From the NCBI GenBank assembly GCA_027452245.1, contig DAIDGW010000012.1:1-39414 (forward strand): 39,414 nucleotides of DNA, given 5' to 3'. Of the stretch, positions 7,604 through 14,306 are shown piece by piece. The position numbers and the translations under genes are program-made. The stretch is from Acidobacteriaceae bacterium. Its GTDB lineage: Bacteria; Acidobacteriota; Terriglobia; Terriglobales; Acidobacteriaceae. The notes below the pieces were generated by a model that worked only from the letters and a program-made list of their open reading frames with translations, searched no databases and had not been told where the DNA came from. Every line of letters starts with the position of its first letter. Position 1 is the first letter of the stretch.

Positions 7604-9145
7604 TTGCGCCATTCGTCCATTTTCGTTGTGGTTGCCTCGTCCTGCCTTCTGGTGGGAGCCGCCGCCTGGCAGATTACCTCCAGTTCTTCTTCTTTGGCGC
7701 ATGCGGAAAGCTCGCCGCAAGCGAGGCTGCTGGCGTTGGGCGGGGATGGAGCCACGGTAAAGCCAGTGAGCGCGAGCATCCCTGGATCGGCCAGCGTTCC
7801 GCCCAAGTCTGTTGCCGCTCCGGGAACGGAACTCTATACGACGAAGCGCGGCGACACGATTCCCGGAATTGCGCATCGCTATCTTGGACGCACGTCTTAT
7901 TTGACTTCGTCGGAACTTGCCGGCGCCATTCGTCAGGATAACGGCAACATTTCGGGAACCTTCCTCAAGGCCAATGAAACGATCACGATTCCAGGAATTC
8001 TGCCGGCGCCGATCGTGGAAAAGAACATTCCCGTGGCGAAAGATTTCGAAGTGCGCGCGATTTATCTCACCGGCATGATGGCGGGGAGCGACAAGGGCAT
8101 TGAGATTATCCGTCACTGGCGGCAGGTTGGCGGGAATGCCGTTGTCTTCGACATCAAAGACTCCGATGGTAGCGTGAGCATTGCCTTCCAGCATCCGCTT
8201 TTGGATAAGCACAACATCTATATCCACGACCTGCCGAAATTCATCCATTTCCTGCACGAGCAGAATATGCACGCGATCGCGCGCCTTGCCATCTTCCGCG
8301 ATGAGCGCCTGGTGACCGAGCATCCCGAACTGGCGGTCCGATCCCATCGCACGAATCAGCCATGGCGGGAGAACGGAAAGCTGGTCTGGACCGATCCCTC
8401 GAACCCGAAGGTGGAGGATTACAACATCGCGCTGGCAAAATATGCCGCGCAGCTCGGTGCCGACGAAATTCAGTTCGATTACGTGCGCTTTCCCGCCGAA
8501 GGCGACCAGAAGGATGCCAGTTTTGCTTTCCAAGCCGAGCATCCTGACTGGCAGCGCTCCGACGTAATCGTGGGATTTTTGAAGAAGGCGTATGCGGAGA
8601 TCCATCCCACCGGTGCACTCTTCTCGCTCGATGTCTTTGGCGTGATGGCATGGCAACGACCGGTTGATCTCTCCCATACCGGACAAGATATAGTGGGCAT
8701 GGCCAAGTATTGCGATGTGCTCTCGCCGATGATTTACCCCTCGCACTTCTTCGGCATGGATCACATCAGTGACCCGGGCGATGCGCCGGAGCACTTTATC
8801 GGCGAGTCAATGGACCGCTTCATTCTTATCACCAAAGGCAGCGGCGTGGTGATCCGGCCGTGGCTGCAAGCGTTCCACTGGCGGACCAAGACCTATTCTC
8901 CCGATTACATCAAGATCCAGGTCGAGACGGCTCGCAAGGAAGGCGGGATTGGGTTCCTCTTCTGGAATGCTGCCAACGACTATAGCAAGCCATACGTGGC
9001 CATGCCGGAAATGCGTACAGCAGATCTGAAGGATTCAGGCAAGGGTCCGCGCTACTTCCGTGGCGATGAATTGCCGGGAGCGGCGACCCGCGCGGCGCTC
9101 GATCACACTCCGATACTCGCGCCATCGCAATCCAATACGCACTAA
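7604..9145 (+). CDS. Exported LysM and DUF4015 putative glycoside hydrolase
   Basis: The 513-residue protein has an N-terminal export signal (to about residue 34), a LysM-like module at about 77-130 (YTTKRGDTIPGIAHRYLG, then ANETITIPG), and a DUF4015 putative glycosyl-hydrolase barrel from about 148 to 480. Barrel landmarks are VRAIYLTG, NAVVFDIKDSDG (178-189), DEIQFDYVRFP (288-298), LFSLDVFG and LSPMIYPSHF; the acidic residues in these are the likely catalytic ones. LysM suggests binding to peptidoglycan or another GlcNAc polymer in the envelope. The start is TTG at 7604 with a strong GGGAGGAA site 3 nt upstream, and no better in-frame codon is near. The substrate is unknown. Confidence 0.87.
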   Translation: MRHSSIFVVVASSCLLVGAAAWQITSSSSSLAHAESSPQARLLALGGDGATVKPVSASIPGSASVPPKSVAAPGTELYTTKRGDTIPGIAHRYLGRTSYLTSSELAGAIRQDNGNISGTFLKANETITIPGILPAPIVEKNIPVAKDFEVRAIYLTGMMAGSDKGIEIIRHWRQVGGNAVVFDIKDSDGSVSIAFQHPLLDKHNIYIHDLPKFIHFLHEQNMHAIARLAIFRDERLVTEHPELAVRSHRTNQPWRENGKLVWTDPSNPKVEDYNIALAKYAAQLGADEIQFDYVRFPAEGDQKDASFAFQAEHPDWQRSDVIVGFLKKAYAEIHPTGALFSLDVFGVMAWQRPVDLSHTGQDIVGMAKYCDVLSPMIYPSHFFGMDHISDPGDAPEHFIGESMDRFILITKGSGVVIRPWLQAFHWRTKTYSPDYIKIQVETARKEGGIGFLFWNAANDYSKPYVAMPEMRTADLKDSGKGPRYFRGDELPGAATRAALDHTPILAPSQSNTH

Positions 9146-9170
9146 GCCGGCGATCTCAGCGCGGCTTTTT
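9144..9170 (+). terminator. Weak terminator-like hairpin after the LysM gene
   Basis: The hairpin AAGCCG (9144-9149) / CGGCTT (9162-9167) with five T in all is placed at the stop codon of the LysM gene. It overlaps the 3' end of the convergent Nudix gene. The loop is 12 nt, so the structure is modest. Confidence 0.4.
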
Positions 9171-9956
9171 CGGAATAGTGCGCTTTGAACTGTCTGCCGA
9201 AAGCAGCTTCAACGGCGGAACGAACGGCAATACCTCGCCGGGCTGGGCCGGTCGCAATGCAAGTCGCTCTGGCCTTTTCTCATTTGACAATTCTGGAGAG
9301 CTGAGTCGACCGGCACGCGCCCGGAAATATGCCTCGGACGCTCTCGCATAAGCCACCGCTAGTTCTGGCGCTTCAAACCTGACACGCAGAAATTCGTGAT
9401 TGTGTCGAGCGTGTGCCGAAGGTCCCGAATCACGGCGCATGCTGATCCGCACCACTGCCTCATTGATGAGGTGGGCGAAGGCCTTCTGATCCTGAGCGCA
9501 TCGTCCTTCCGCCAGCCGGAGCCTGGCCTCCGAGGCTGAAAACCAGGTGCGATTGCGTCCTGCTTCCTTGGGACGAGCGAGCCTACAAACCTCACACAAA
9601 TACGCGTTGACGATCAGATCGCCACGATTGCGGTTCCCGGAAGCCCGCCGGCGGTACTGAAGAAACGCGTTTTCCTCAATCCGGCCATGCACGCCAGCTT
9701 CTTCCAACGATTCCAAGGCTGCCGTCTGGGCGAGCGTCAGCTTCGATTCCACTCCGCCCTTGGGAAAAGTCCAGCGTCGACGCGCACCGCGTGTTTGCAC
9801 CAGAAGAAACTCGACCTGGTCATTTTGCATGCGGTAGCAGACGCTTGCCACCTCGTCAGGCTGGCGGACACTCTCCCGTTTGTTCGAGGCGCGATGCAGG
9901 TCGGTTCTAACCGTCTGGCCGAATCGGAGTCGAAACGAACGCGAGGCCGTACTCAT
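9156..9956 (-). CDS. Nudix hydrolase with C-terminal extension
   Basis: A Nudix domain is recognisable from RWTFPKGGVESKLTLAQTAALE followed by SLEEAGV. The Nudix box keeps the metal-binding EExGV core, but has Leu where the consensus has the first Glu and the Arg of REUxEE. The protein resembles the diphosphoinositol/Ap4A-type branch with a WTFPKGG lead. About 110 residues follow the domain and have no recognised fold; they are rich in Arg, Ala and Pro, ending PKKPR. A GTG at 9983 would add 9 residues; the ATG at 9956 is used as the more ordinary codon, and neither has a clear ribosome-binding site. It is convergent with the LysM gene and divergent from the zinc-ribbon gene. The substrate is not predictable. 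Confidence 0.8.
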   Translation of the reverse strand: MSTASRSFRLRFGQTVRTDLHRASNKRESVRQPDEVASVCYRMQNDQVEFLLVQTRGARRRWTFPKGGVESKLTLAQTAALESLEEAGVHGRIEENAFLQYRRRASGNRNRGDLIVNAYLCEVCRLARPKEAGRNRTWFSASEARLRLAEGRCAQDQKAFAHLINEAVVRISMRRDSGPSAHARHNHEFLRVRFEAPELAVAYARASEAYFRARAGRLSSPELSNEKRPERLALRPAQPGEVLPFVPPLKLLSADSSKRTIPKKPR

Positions 9957-10109
9957 GCTGCTAGAGTGCGAGACTTGCCACACCGCTGCCTAGAGCAAAC
10001 TTGGTTCTGGTTTGCACTGTGGCGCTATTTGCCGGCAGGAATCTGTTTACTTACTTGTATTTGGGAACAGCCCGCGCCAGCATGACGCGAGCAGCACAGA
10101 AAGGAAGTC

Positions 10110-10448: not shown

Positions 10449-10738
10449 GTCAGATCACAGCGGCGCAAGGGCCCGTTTCTACCTTTCATTCCCAAAACAG
10501 GAAAACCTGTCCCTTTCAAATCCGGCGTCCAGCATGGCATTTGCCCGATTTTCACAAGAGAGCACGATGCCGGCAAATAGGGACTGTTCGCAGTTGTTCT
10601 TCAGAAATTCGCGAAAAGCCGCACTGCGGATGGGCTTTGCAAAAAGATGAATCGCACTTTGCACAATTTCCGGTCAGCGGCCTGTGAACCAGCTGCACTC
10701 GATTGAAAATGCATGTAGTTGCAGGCTCGTATTTTTCG
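10449..10738. other. Non-coding spacer before the tandem RNA
   Basis: No credible gene is visible; open frames here lack ribosome-binding sites and family features. The only structure I see is a small hairpin ACAGG-GAAAA-CCTGT at 10496-10510. Confidence 0.5.
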
Positions 10739-10766
10739 TTGACGAAAAAAATAGAAAGAGTAAAAC
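10732..10766 (+). promoter_or_regulatory. Candidate promoter and dyad of the tandem RNA
   Basis: TTGACG (10739-10744) and TAAAAC (10761-10766) are 16 nt apart, which would start a transcript near 10773, just before the first closing helix of the RNA. The -35 lies inside a perfect dyad TTTTTCGT-TG-ACGAAAAA (10732-10749), a possible operator. Confidence 0.45.
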
Positions 10767-10776
10767 CATAATCGTT

Positions 10777-10917
10777 CTTTGACATTTCCTTGGTTTTGCC
10801 GGTTGGTGCCGAGTCCGGGGCTCAAGCAAGATCACCTTTGATTGCGCAAATCGAAGGAGGGTCCGCAAGGGTCTATAGCAAAGCGCTGGTCGAGAGGAAC
10901 GAGGAGACAAGTCAAAG
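10777..10917 (+). repeat. RNA module 1 of the tandem pair
   Basis: A 141-nt unit closed by the 7-bp helix CTTTGAC/GTCAAAG. About 28 of 35 positions match module 2 across the block from CCGGTTGG to GATC, and the downstream motifs keep the same order. Confidence 0.6.
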
Positions 10918-10924
10918 GCAGGAT

Positions 10925-11091
10925 AGAGTTCCGAGGCGTTGAGTCGGTTTATCCGGTTGGCGGTGAGCCCGGAGCCCAAGCAAAGATCGCGCGCTGAAAT
11001 CCCGCAAGGGAAGAAGCGAGAGCAGGTCGAGCAAGGGTCTAACGCGAGCTACTGGCCGAGACGAATGGACACAACACCACCTCGGAACTCT
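10925..11091 (+). repeat. RNA module 2 of the tandem pair
   Basis: A 167-nt unit closed by a perfect 12-bp helix. It differs from module 1 mainly by about 12 extra nt in the middle, which includes a CCC-GCAA-GGG hairpin with a GNRA-type loop (11001-11010). Confidence 0.6.
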
Positions 11092-11207
11092 TAATTTTTG
11101 GTGCGATCGTCAATCGCTGTCCTTTGCGTGTATTCTCCGCGTTTCCCATTCTCGCAATGATCCGCTTCGAACTAATGGGCCGCTGAAGTTGACTCGGCAG
11201 CTGATTT

Positions 11208-14200
11208 CTAGTCCACGTGCTCGCCTTCGGCAAAACCGGGTTCGGCGGGCGGTAACACGTCGCGCTCCCCGGCCACCCAGACATATAACGTAGGAAGCAG
11301 GAAAATACTGAGCACGAGCGCCGCGATGAGTCCGCCGACGATGACAATCGCGAAGGGACGTTGAGAATCCGATCCAATCGCATGCGAGAGCGCGGCGGGG
11401 AGAAGCCCGAGCGTCGCGACGAGCATCGTCATCATGATCGGACGGAGTCGCAGCACGGCTCCTTCCACCGCGGCGTCTTCAATGGAGAATCGCCGTACCC
11501 GCAGCTGATTGATGTATTCCAGCATGATGACGCCGGTCTGGACGGATACCCCGAAAAGGGCGAGAAAGCCTACGCCCGAGGACACGCTGAAGTTCGTCCC
11601 TGTAATCAGCAGCGCCCACTTAAACGATTTAAACATCGTGTAAAGAATGATGAAGATAATGAGAATCGTAATCGGAAGAACGATCAGCAAGCGGGCATCA
11701 GCGCGCTGTTTGCTCTGGTATTCGCCCTCCCACTTCAGGTGATAACCGCCCGGCAGCTTCACTTCGTCGTTCACCTTCTTCATCGCCTCTTCGACAGTGC
11801 TGCCGAGATCGCGGCCGCGTACGCTGTACTTGATGGCGATGTAACGCTGATTCCCCTCGCGATAAATCTCCGAACCGCCGTCCGCCGTTTCGATATTGCA
11901 GAGCTGCGCCAGGGAAACACGTTCGCCGGTCGGAGACAACAGCCGAATGTTTTCAATCGCCTCTTTGGTGTCGCGGTATTTTGGCAGATAGCGCAGCACC
12001 AGATCGTAGCGGGCTTCGCCTTGTAGAACCTGGGTTAACGCACTGCCGCCCACCGCCGTCTGGATCGCATCCTGCACGTCGGCCACGTTGATCTGATACC
12101 GCGCTGCAGCCTCGCGGTTGACGGTGACATTCAGGTTCGGCTGCCCGAGAACCCGGAACACTCCCAGATCCTCGATGCCGTTGACCTTGCTCATCACGTT
12201 GACGATTTCGTCTGCTTTGGCGTCGAGAACGCGGAGGTCGTCGCCGAACAGTTTCGTAGCAAGTTCTCCTTTGACGCCGCTGACTGCTTCTTCCATGTTG
12301 TCTTCGATAGGCTGCGAGAATCCCCAAACGACTCCGGGAATTTTGTCGAGTTCCCTCCCCATAGCGGCGATCAATTTGTCTTTATTCTGGTGGAACACCG
12401 GACGCCACTGACCTTTGGGTTTCAGATCGACGAAATACTCGGTATTAAAAAAGCCGGTCGTGTCGGTGCCGTCATCGGGACGCCCCACCTGGCTGGTACA
12501 CTGCGGAACTTCGGGGAATGAGCACAGCACATGACGCGCCTCATTCGAGACACGGATGCCTTCATTCGGTCCGGTGCTCGGCGCCAATGTTCCGCGCACC
12601 CAGAGTGCGCCTTCATCGAGGTGTGGCAGAAACTCCGAGCCAATCGCACCGCTAAACGCTAGATACAGGGCAAGAGCGAGGAAGCAGCCGGTCACACCCA
12701 CCGTTACCGCTCGATGACGGATCGCCCACCGCACCGCATGCCGATAGCGCTCGATCAGGTACGACATCACCGGGTTATGCCATTCCTTCGCGCCGTGCGC
12801 GAAAGCAAAACTGGCCAGCACCGGTGCGATCAGGATCGAGAAGATCAACGCGCCGAGCAAGGCAAAGGCCACCGTCCACGCCATCGGGTGGAATAAGCGG
12901 CCTTCGACGCGCTGCAGCGTGAAGATTGGTAAATAAGCCGTGATGATGATGGCGATGGCATAGAACACCGGGCGTTGTACTTCGTGCGAAGCCTCGGCAA
13001 TCTTCTCTGTGGGTGTGTCCGTGCCGTTCGAGAAGCTCATGTGGCGCACGATGTTTTCGATCATGACCACCGCGCCGTCTACTACCATGCCGAAATCCAG
13101 CGCTCCTAGCGAGAGCAGGTTGGCAGGAACATGCTTCAGGTCAAGGCAAATCGAGGCAAACAGCAGCGAAAACGGAATCGTCGCCGCCACAATGATTGCG
13201 CCACGAATATTCCCGAGAAAAAGAAACAGGATGATCGAAACCAGAATCATTCCTTCAGTCAGATTGTGCAGAACAGTATGAGTCGTGAAATGCACCAGGT
13301 CGCTGCGGTCGATGAAGGGAACGATTTTCACTCCTTTGGGAAGGATGTGATCGTTCATTTCCTGGATCTTTTCGTGCAGGGCTCTCAGCGCGTTATCGGC
13401 GGGCGCTCCCTTGCGTAGCAGCACGATTCCGGAAACCACGTCGTCATTGTCGACAATCGTTCCGTCCTCGCGATGAATCGCGCGCGCGAATTGACCGAGA
13501 CGAATCTTTGGACCTTGTTCCACGACGGCGATGTCTTTCACCCGCAAAGGGGTGCCGTTCTTGGTATAGATCACGGTCTCCTGGATGTCGTGGACGTGAT
13601 CGACCAGTCCGACCTCGCGGACGTTGACCTGCTGCAGTCCCTCCTGAATGAAGCTTCCCCCGGCATTTGCATTGTTATTGGCAAGTTGCTGTTCAACCTG
13701 ACTCAGGCTCAACCCGTAGGCAATTAACTTGTCGGGGTCAAGCCGCACCTGATATTCGCGCGTCGGTCCGCCGAAGCTGGAGACGTCCACGATGTCGGGA
13801 ACGGATTTTAGGTTCTTCTCGACGACCCAATCTTCGAGCGACTTCAACTCCATTGGGTCGTATTTTGGGTTGTCGCTGTGCAGGGTGAAGAAATAAATCT
13901 GTCCCACGGGGCTCCAGTCCGTTCCCATCTGCGGACTGACGCCGGGCGGTAGGGTGACTTGGCTCAGGCGTTCCAGCACGCGCTCGCGATTCCAGGCATT
14001 ATCGGTCTGGTCGTCGAAGATGAGTTTCAAGTCCGAAAGTCCGAACAGCGAAAACGAACGCAAATGCACAACGCCTGGAATCCCGTTCATCACGGTTTCG
14101 AGCGGAATCGTGACCTGCTGCTCGATCTGTTCGGCCGAGATGCCCGGCCATTGCGTGATGACTTCGACGTAGTTGTCGGCAACGTCGGGATAGGCTTCGA

Positions 14201-14306
14201 TCGGCAAGTTGTGAAACGATACGACGCCCCAGGCAAACAGGACGAGTGCCAGCGCCAGCACCAGCAGGCGGTTTCCAAGGGCGAAATCGACGACGCGGCG
14301 AATCAT
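11208..14306 (-). CDS. czcA: Heavy-metal efflux RND transporter, inner-membrane pump
   Basis: The 1032-residue protein has the RND layout: transmembrane segment at 12-30, large periplasmic loop, a group of six helices, second periplasmic loop, second helix group. The helix-4 motif DFGMVVDGAVVMIEN (404-418) carries the acidic residues for proton translocation and is the signature of the heavy-metal (HME) subfamily that exports Co, Zn, Cd or Ni. The pump takes metal from the cytoplasm or periplasm through the adaptor to the outer-membrane channel. It starts directly after the czcB stop (TAA ATG), as last gene of a czcCBA operon. The exact metal cannot be decided; the motif favours divalent cations over Cu/Ag. 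Confidence 0.95.
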   Translation of the reverse strand: MIRRVVDFALGNRLLVLALALVLFAWGVVSFHNLPIEAYPDVADNYVEVITQWPGISAEQIEQQVTIPLETVMNGIPGVVHLRSFSLFGLSDLKLIFDDQTDNAWNRERVLERLSQVTLPPGVSPQMGTDWSPVGQIYFFTLHSDNPKYDPMELKSLEDWVVEKNLKSVPDIVDVSSFGGPTREYQVRLDPDKLIAYGLSLSQVEQQLANNNANAGGSFIQEGLQQVNVREVGLVDHVHDIQETVIYTKNGTPLRVKDIAVVEQGPKIRLGQFARAIHREDGTIVDNDDVVSGIVLLRKGAPADNALRALHEKIQEMNDHILPKGVKIVPFIDRSDLVHFTTHTVLHNLTEGMILVSIILFLFLGNIRGAIIVAATIPFSLLFASICLDLKHVPANLLSLGALDFGMVVDGAVVMIENIVRHMSFSNGTDTPTEKIAEASHEVQRPVFYAIAIIITAYLPIFTLQRVEGRLFHPMAWTVAFALLGALIFSILIAPVLASFAFAHGAKEWHNPVMSYLIERYRHAVRWAIRHRAVTVGVTGCFLALALYLAFSGAIGSEFLPHLDEGALWVRGTLAPSTGPNEGIRVSNEARHVLCSFPEVPQCTSQVGRPDDGTDTTGFFNTEYFVDLKPKGQWRPVFHQNKDKLIAAMGRELDKIPGVVWGFSQPIEDNMEEAVSGVKGELATKLFGDDLRVLDAKADEIVNVMSKVNGIEDLGVFRVLGQPNLNVTVNREAAARYQINVADVQDAIQTAVGGSALTQVLQGEARYDLVLRYLPKYRDTKEAIENIRLLSPTGERVSLAQLCNIETADGGSEIYREGNQRYIAIKYSVRGRDLGSTVEEAMKKVNDEVKLPGGYHLKWEGEYQSKQRADARLLIVLPITILIIFIILYTMFKSFKWALLITGTNFSVSSGVGFLALFGVSVQTGVIMLEYINQLRVRRFSIEDAAVEGAVLRLRPIMMTMLVATLGLLPAALSHAIGSDSQRPFAIVIVGGLIAALVLSIFLLPTLYVWVAGERDVLPPAEPGFAEGEHVD

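What the first reader, a model, noticed from the sequence alone, without database searches (positions are those of the whole stretch)
10732..11099. Tandem structured RNA of unknown family, each module closed by a different helix
Seen: two non-coding modules (10777-10917 and 10925-11091) share the ordered blocks CCGGTTGG, CAAGCAA, GCAAGGGTCTA and CTGGYCGAGA. Their closing arms have no sequence in common, yet each pair is fully complementary (7 bp and 12 bp). This is the pattern expected when structure, not sequence, is conserved. Module 1 adds a 9-bp hairpin with a G-U wobble that fixes the plus strand. A TTGACG-N16-TAAAAC promoter lies just upstream and a T-run just after. Inference: an independent RNA of about 325 nt with a duplicated domain. 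The adjacent gene is convergent, so this is not a simple riboswitch leader. I cannot match it to a known class.
Basis: partly seen in the sequence, partly recalled or inferred. Interest (0 to 1): 0.75.

Follow-up and report, generated by a model that had tools for sequence, protein, structure and literature searches.

The report
Unknown modular noncoding RNA, soil Acidobacteria
Two tandem folded RNA segments in this window are one free-standing RNA gene that is absent from the Rfam catalogue, is kept by many Acidobacteria and is longer in some relatives; its job is unknown.

Summary
Window 10772-11099 (+) reads as an autonomous structured RNA of about 325 nt: own promoter, two homologous rod-like modules, terminator. 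Rfam 15 has no credible match. Homologues occur in 76 of 150 genomes of the same family. In 52 selected homologues both modules, closing helices included, covary: 97.6% and 97.5% of cells pair, against at most 53.3% when partners are slid. No conserved neighbour gene was found.

(2) The module 1 apical loop can expand by up to about 340 nt. (3) A sister family has an RNA of about 940 nt, z = -12: a model built only from two-module RNAs finds four modules clearly, and a later model supports a fifth. (4) A block upstream of the promoter is conserved.

Transcription was not tested and function is undetermined. My best guess is a multivalent protein-binding scaffold or sponge.

The parts
10660..10725 (+). 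Conserved upstream block (TGCAC..CCTGTG..GCTGCACTCGATTGAAAA), perhaps a regulator site or UP-type element of the promoter
   Evidence: 0.41-0.72 bits per position in the 10-nt bins from -110 to -60 relative to boxA over 152 homologues, against 0.03-0.06 bits in the bins from 30 nt after the start of the 3' closing arm; consensus. Function inferred.
10739..10744 (+). -35 hexamer TTGACG
   Evidence: TTGAC present upstream in 152 of 153 homologues
10761..10766 (+). -10 hexamer TAAAAC, spacer 16
   Evidence: TAAAAN is the commonest hexamer found by the script; spacer 16 in 114 and 17 in 5 of 153; the other 34 got other spacers from its automatic choice of -10, at least some of them misplaced
10772..10784 (+). 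boxA-like 5' end TCGTTCTTTGACA; 10774-10782 is also the 5' closing arm of module 1
   Evidence: GTTCTTTGACA exact in 130 of 157 distinct homologues, which were themselves chosen by at least 9 of 13 matches here; 10 of 11 identical to a site in each of the four 16S leaders examined
10774..10919 (+). Module 1, closed by 10774-10782 with 10912-10919
   Evidence: 43 pairs, 97.6% of cells paired, 21 pairs with a change on both sides in 52 homologues
10793..10900 (+). Core of module 1, homologous to the core of module 2
   Evidence: Joint core alignment and model R1; its 100-bit match here is by construction
10834..10860 (+). Apical hairpin of module 1; site of insertions in relatives
   Evidence: Split BLAST matches around query 97-118; folds of nine expanded forms
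10920..10937 (+). Linker and 5' closing arm of module 2 (10925-10936)
   Evidence: Pairs with 11080-11091: 11 pairs, 99.0% paired, 7 with a change on both sides; CARGATAG within the RNA in 127 of 157
10925..11091 (+). Module 2
   Evidence: 51 pairs, 97.5% of cells paired, 24 pairs with a change on both sides
10947..11066 (+). Core of module 2
   Evidence: 106 bits, by construction
11080..11099 (+). 3' closing arm CCTCGGAACTCT followed by TAATTTTT: terminator formed by the closing helix (inferred)
   Evidence: 5 or more T in the 12 nt from the last base of the arm in 145 of 155 homologues. The simple terminator scan does not list it, the helix enclosing a whole module.

Best explanation
Shown (by conservation, not by experiment): window 10772-11099 (+) encodes a free-standing structured RNA of a family absent from Rfam 15. 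It has its own conserved promoter region and a T-run after its closing helix, is usually found in one or two copies per genome, and no conserved partner gene was found. It is built from rod modules of about 150 nt with near-invariant internal loops: two modules in the window's family and at least four, probably five, in a sister family.

Inferred: the 5' boxA-like end recruits the Nus (NusB-S10) complex, so that a long untranslated RNA is made to full length; it is then masked when module 1 closes over it.

Inferred, my commitment: the RNA acts in trans as a multivalent scaffold or sponge. Each module's conserved internal loops and wobble pairs bind a protein, and module number sets valency. 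I put the RNA family itself at about 0.97 and the scaffold or sponge mechanism at about 0.4.
For: RNA family: 76 of 150 family genomes match, the window's own included. Covariation with shuffle and slide controls. Promoter and T-run conserved, with conservation at background from 30 nt after the start of the 3' arm. No conserved neighbour: the largest protein family within 4.5 kb occurs at 24 of 157 places, the nearest downstream gene belongs to one family in at most 18 of 126 and is convergent in 93 of 126. No match in the phage and plasmid collections (blastn) or, for an exact module 2 pattern only, in viral contigs.

Module repetition: model R1, made from window-family sequences only, finds four same-strand modules at E <= 5.3e-5 (33 kb searched) in each of two sister-family genomes, with start spacings of 149-167 nt once a fifth, weaker one in register is counted. 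The fifth scores 25.1 and 22.8 bits with R2, which was not trained on it. Same-position modules are 74-92% identical between the two genomes but 42-56% between positions, so the array is old and fixed.

Multivalency is suggested by one core reused with different closing helices and different module number, and by core positions kept beyond what pairing needs, including four adjacent G-U/U-G wobble pairs kept in 51-52 of 52 sequences.

boxA; the 5' arm is near-invariant while its 3' partner drifts through G-U.
Against: No binding partner, transcript or phenotype is known. No boxA-like site better than 8 of 12 lies on the coding strand of the G164 locus of the long RNA, though the sister family's own 16S boxA was not examined; so boxA may not be part of the core design. 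The boxA reading rests on four 16S leaders, and the 11-mer GTTCTTTGACA also occurs at many other places (64 matches in 10 genomes, 26 for the reversed control). Variable module number equally fits a self-assembling or purely architectural RNA. 74 of 150 genomes of the same family gave no match, so the RNA is not universal.
Confidence: 0.5

Rival explanations
1. RNA polymerase-binding regulator, working like 6S or Ms1 RNA: a long rod with internal loops that docks on polymerase.
For: Long rod-like hairpins and a conserved promoter. Ms1 shows that a second polymerase-binding RNA type can exist (abstract and passages of PMC9130861).
Against: A 6S RNA over Rfam's cut-off is present elsewhere in the same genome (G000:C161:44297-44486, 56.3 bits), so the 6S role looks taken. 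No match to the 6S model here. Tandem modules and sequence-invariant internal loops are not 6S-like (recalled). No comparison with Ms1 was made.
Confidence: 0.13
2. Self-assembling ornate RNA, working like OLE, ROOL or GOLLD: modules pack together within and between molecules.
For: Repeated modules, invariant internal loops, and an expandable multi-hairpin domain with recurring C(GACG)G, C(GGCG)G and C(GGCA)G loops (23 of 78 predicted hairpin loops in 15 elements, some of them close relatives; ACGGC[AG]GT 14 times against 0.2 expected). Very stable folding of the long form (z = -12). OLE, ROOL and GOLLD form homo-oligomers (PMC12286853, abstract and section 8).
Against: No test of contacts between molecules was possible. 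The two-module RNA (about 325 nt) is smaller than those RNAs (sizes recalled). The module 1 and module 2 CCGG loops showed no covariation by eye.
Confidence: 0.17
3. Decoy for the Nus antitermination complex: the boxA end titrates NusB-S10 and so tunes rRNA synthesis.
For: Near-invariant boxA-like 5' end; CARGATAG in 127 of 157 homologues, with CAAGATAG in three of the four 16S leaders and CAAAATAG in the fourth.
Against: boxA is paired in the folded RNA (99.3% of cells), which should weaken a decoy. The long RNA lacks a clear one. The CAAGATAG match is short and was not tested against chance.
Confidence: 0.1
4. Cis-acting leader, tandem riboswitch or antisense regulator of a neighbour.
For: It lies between genes; tandem riboswitches exist.
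Against: Nearest downstream gene convergent in 93 of 126 and of many unrelated families; the RNA ends in its own closing helix and T-run.
Confidence: 0.04
5. Mobile or selfish repeat, or a decayed rRNA-operon leader.
For: Two copies at different places in many genomes; copies 95.8% identical in G014; some copies break off at contig ends; boxA-like end shared with the 16S leader.
Against: Copy number is usually one or two; copies belong to separate lineages in 5 of 8 genomes tested; paired structure under selection; no rRNA match in the window or within 1.5 kb of 15 homologues.
Confidence: 0.04

Closest known systems
6S RNA (Rfam RF00013)
   Same: Long rod-like hairpin, stand-alone gene
   Different: No model match; two or more tandem modules; sequence-invariant internal loops; a separate 6S gene in the same genome
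Ms1 RNA of Actinobacteria
   Same: Stand-alone structured RNA of about 300 nt (size recalled; passages of PMC9130861 seen)
   Different: Ms1 has conserved neighbours (same passages); none was found here. Sequence and fold were not compared.
OLE, ROOL and GOLLD large RNAs
   Same: Large, stable, ornate RNAs without a known coding role (the sister-family form is about 940 nt)
   Different: No Rfam match; built from homologous repeated modules; narrow host range so far; multimers untested
16S rRNA leader with boxA
   Same: boxA-like site at the 5' side and a CAAGATAG-like element
   Different: No rRNA match in or near the RNA
Acido-1 and Acido-Lenti-1 (RF01686, RF01687)
   Same: Structured RNAs of Acidobacteria listed as not cis-regulatory (Table 1 of PMC2864571, passages)
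   Different: Both are in Rfam and neither model matched. The Solibacter-1 and Soil-1 motifs of that paper carry no Rfam number and could not be compared.

Membership tests
6S RNA (RF00013) | Match to the covariance model | tested here: not met
   No 6S match at E<=10 in 10500-11250; 6S found elsewhere in the genome
6S RNA (RF00013) | Binds polymerase holoenzyme through a central bubble | not testable with these tools
   Needs biochemistry
Riboswitch or cis-regulatory leader | Conserved position upstream of a particular class of gene | tested here: not met
   Largest nearest-downstream family 18 of 126; convergent in 93 of 126
Any of 4227 Rfam 15 families | Match at or above gathering score | tested here: not met
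   Window; 15 homologous loci; long RNA (best 28.4 bits, E 0.0063, MIR8622, against a 197-bit cut-off); expanded form (20.5 bits against 86.3)
OLE / ROOL / GOLLD | Rfam model match | tested here: not met
OLE / ROOL / GOLLD | RNA-only homo-oligomers | not testable with these tools
   Needs mass photometry or cryo-EM
boxA-bearing transcript (Nus antitermination) | boxA sequence as in the organism's own rRNA leaders | tested here: met
   10 of 11 identical in the four leaders found, of 10 genomes searched; none of the four is the window's own genome
boxA-bearing transcript (Nus antitermination) | NusB-S10 binding and antitermination | not testable with these tools
   Needs biochemistry
Free-standing structured RNA | Covarying helices in homologues | tested here: met
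   with shuffled and slid controls
Free-standing structured RNA | Own promoter and terminator | tested here: met
   By sequence conservation only; the generic scan lists neither
Free-standing structured RNA | Discrete transcript | not tested
   No RNA-seq reads available here

The most novel reading that the evidence does not exclude
A modular RNA machine: an RNA rod of about 150 nt was duplicated into fixed arrays of two (one family) or five to six (sister family), with an optional multi-hairpin crown of up to about 340 nt. The molecule is made under Nus antitermination like rRNA and assembles, with itself or with a protein, into a defined multi-subunit particle whose module number sets its size.
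Probability: 0.15. Interest if true: 0.92.

Novelty: categorically new. Interest (0 to 1): 0.73.

Why it matters
An RNA family this conserved, this independent of its neighbours and outside Rfam is worth a specialist's time. It offers a natural series (two modules, an expandable loop, four to six modules) for asking what module number does, and a testable case of an rRNA-type boxA on a non-ribosomal RNA. A direct test may already sit in public data: the RNA lies on contig OMOD01000136.1 of peat MAG SbA1, and peat metatranscriptome reads were mapped to that MAG (PMC6018796, passages). 'Categorically new' is meant at the level of RNA family: stand-alone structured RNAs as a kind are known, and the mechanism here is not.

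Tried and rejected
6S RNA: set aside by model and by a separate 6S gene. Riboswitch or leader: context. Coding: lengths change by single bases. Phage or plasmid origin: no blastn match; viral contigs were scanned only for an exact module 2 pattern, without a match. Degenerate rRNA operon: no rRNA match in the window or in 15 loci of about 3 kb.

Wider distribution: model R1 hit 7 of 346 phylum genomes, all of the same family. Model R2 hit 36 of 399 class genomes: 31 of the same family, 2 of the sister family, and 3 weak single hits (E 0.003-0.008) that overlap long open frames and that I count as chance. Both searches used strict filters and scored few candidates per genome, so they miss copies. 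With lax filters, R1 hit 16 of 34 chosen genomes at E <= 1; the single hits with E above 0.003 in eight of them (G013, G042, G035, G016, G066, G163, G019, G034) are unproven. I looked at six of the eight for end motifs and at three with R2 (19.9-22.7 bits, no second module).

Sister family: BLAST with the long RNA matched 5 of 14 genomes; one (G497) is a 36-nt match that I judged by eye to be chance.

A promoter-plus-boxA pattern search used wrong spacing and failed its positive controls. The corrected pattern hit only one of the two control genomes, so neither says anything about genera without a match.

Rows dropped: of 74 full-length elements 61 were under 440 nt; nine of these were left out of the module alignments as divergent, truncated or badly aligned, leaving 52, which raises the percentages paired. 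The 157 elements were chosen by matches at both ends (9 of 13 and 9 of 14), 210 of 231 places passing, so end conservation is somewhat favoured. The core alignment used 77 of 104 cores, chosen by eye. Alignment A5 was not used for a model because expanded elements were split in halves; A6 was.

Weak spots: the 5'-most 150 nt of the long RNA match no model, so 'six modules' is not shown. Unrelated sequence in the sister-family loci reaches 14.9 bits with R1, so the fifth module's 13.4 and 14.0 bits rest on register and on R2. Whether sister-family modules are of type 1 or 2 could not be decided. Shuffle control (a) ignores relatedness; slide control (b) keeps it. A module 1 to module 2 CCGG loop pairing was considered by eye and dropped. 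Supplements of papers were not available.

Full report
What is there. The window is contig 12 of a 274-contig, 6.2-Mb assembly. Of three flanking proteins scanned, a NUDIX protein lies on one side and an RND pump, running towards the RNA, on the other. Between them lies 10660-11099: a conserved upstream block, a promoter (TTGACG, 16 nt, TAAAAC), and an RNA of about 325 nt made of two homologous modules and followed by a T-run. The modules share two aligned stretches of 79% and 74% identity. The whole folds far better than shuffles on the plus strand (z = -4.61). Module 1 alone does too (z = -3.14), while module 2 cut without its 3' arm does not (z = -0.47).

Is it known? Rfam 15 gives no match in the window at gathering scores and, with relaxed filters to E = 10, only an 18-nt hairpin in the promoter region at 15 bits. 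Fifteen homologous loci at gathering scores, the long sister-family form (best 28.4 bits against a cut-off of 197) and an expanded form (20.5 against 86.3) gave nothing credible either. Paper searches (listings only) showed no description of it. I saw passages of PMC2864571, PMC8632094, PMC5725501, PMC9130861 and PMC6018796, and the abstract and section 8 of PMC12286853. The Solibacter-1 and Soil-1 motifs listed in PMC2864571 without Rfam numbers could not be compared.

Who has it. BLAST finds it in 76 of 150 genomes drawn from the window's family, the window's own included, in 48 of 79 genera. By my count of that table, 24 of the 76 have two matches over 200 bits on different contigs. No match was found in phage or plasmid records, nor in viral contigs for the exact pattern used. 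In 8 of the 24 two-copy genomes that I compared, the copies are each other's closest relatives in 3 and belong to separate lineages in 5: mostly old paralogues.

It is an RNA, and on the plus strand. In 52 homologues, module 1 (43 pairs) and module 2 (51 pairs) are paired in 97.6% and 97.5% of cells, with 21 and 24 pairs changed on both sides. Sliding the partners by 1-3 columns drops pairing to 41-53% and 36-47%, and none of 500 shuffles reaches the observed values. In module 1's closing helix two of eight do. The core is more conserved than pairing requires: four adjacent wobble pairs of module 1 are kept in 51 or 52 of 52 sequences, and the loop stretch TCCGGG is invariant.

It is a gene of its own. 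TTGAC is present upstream in 152 of 153 homologues. Conservation falls to 0.03-0.06 bits per position from 30 nt after the start of the 3' arm, but is 0.41-0.72 bits from -110 to -60. There a block TGCAC..CCTGTGGAC..GCTGCACTCGATTGAAAA lies. Part of it, TGAAAATAAAC and its distance to TTGAC, recurs before the sister-family RNA in the one pair I compared by eye (L159 and G167). Neighbours are unrelated: the commonest nearby protein family occurs at 24 of 157 places, and the next gene downstream is convergent in 93 of 126.

boxA. The RNA begins TCGTTCTTTGACA (120 of 157; core GTTCTTTGACA exact in 130 of 157, among elements chosen by 9 of 13 matches there). A 16S start was found in 4 of 10 genomes searched, and all four leaders carry TCGGTCTTTGACAA, 10 of 11 identical to the core. 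The 11-mer itself is not specific: it occurs 64 times in 10 genomes, 26 times for the reversed control. The same arm pairs with the 3' end of module 1 in 99.3% of cells and stays fixed while its partner drifts between A and G, so it seems to have a constraint beyond pairing. That it recruits Nus factors is inference from known boxA biology (PMC5725501, passages).

Expansion inside the family. In 13 of 157 distinct elements the RNA exceeds 400 nt, up to 669, through growth of the apical loop of module 1. The added part folds into a run of short strong hairpins. Of 78 predicted hairpin loops in 15 elements, 10 are C(GACG)G, 7 C(GGCG)G and 6 C(GGCA)G; ACGGC[AG]GT occurs 14 times against 0.2 in shuffles. 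Some of these elements are close relatives, so the counts are not independent.

The long form. With lax filters R1 found clear related modules in two genomes of a sister family (G164, G167), and BLAST added G166. The RNA is about 940 nt, with a TTGAC promoter and a T-run end. It folds at -517.6 kcal/mol, z = -12.07 against 20 shuffles. R1, which saw no sister-family sequence, marks five same-strand modules in register in G164 (23.8, 30.8, 13.4, 33.1, 45.4 bits) and in G166 (29.8, 29.4, 14.0, 24.1, 44.8). In the truncated G167 two are clear (37.1, 34.0) and three lie at noise level (9.6, 12.6, 8.2). Unrelated sequence in these loci reaches 14.9 bits, so four modules are clear in G164 and G166. 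The fourth in order (13.4, 14.0) is supported by R2, which was not trained on it, at 25.1 and 22.8 bits. Three modules are closed by arms of 23-36 nt that are 81-91% complementary. The same position is 74-92% identical between the two genomes, different positions 42-56%. So the array is old and fixed, not a recent stutter. The 5'-most 150 nt also fold as a hairpin but match no model.

What it does. I commit, at about 0.4, to a trans-acting multivalent scaffold or sponge: one core reused two to five times, with fixed internal loops and free-to-vary closing helices, is what repeated protein-binding sites look like. The self-assembling ornate RNA is the strongest rival and the most novel reading. 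6S-like polymerase binding is less likely, because the genome has a normal 6S. A Nus decoy is possible, but the boxA is masked. None of these has been tested.

Verdict. It is the two-module member of a modular RNA family with a larger relative, and nothing that I found in Rfam 15 or in the papers searched covers it.

Noticed in passing
L289:5985-6925 (+), genome G164; L301 (-), G166; L290/L267, G167: Relative of about 940 nt in a sister family with four clear, probably five tandem modules and long complementary linkers.
   Followed up: yes
window 10660-10725: Conserved block upstream of the promoter with CCTGTGGAC-like and TGCAC sequences; could be a regulator's site.
   Followed up: partly
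L065, L066, L069, L070, L076, L077 (module 1 apical loop): Expandable multi-hairpin domain with recurring GACG, GGCG and GGCA tetraloops, far above shuffles.
   Followed up: partly
L258-L261, upstream of 16S genes: Four 16S leaders share the boxA site TCTTTGACAA; three have CAAGATAG and the fourth CAAAATAG, an element like the linker of this RNA.
   Followed up: partly
window 7604-9145 (+), 9156-9983 (-), 11208-14306 (-): Neighbours: a DUF4015 putative glycosyl hydrolase, a NUDIX-domain protein, and an AcrB-type RND pump.
   Followed up: no
G000:C161:44297-44486 (-): 6S RNA of the same genome.
   Followed up: no
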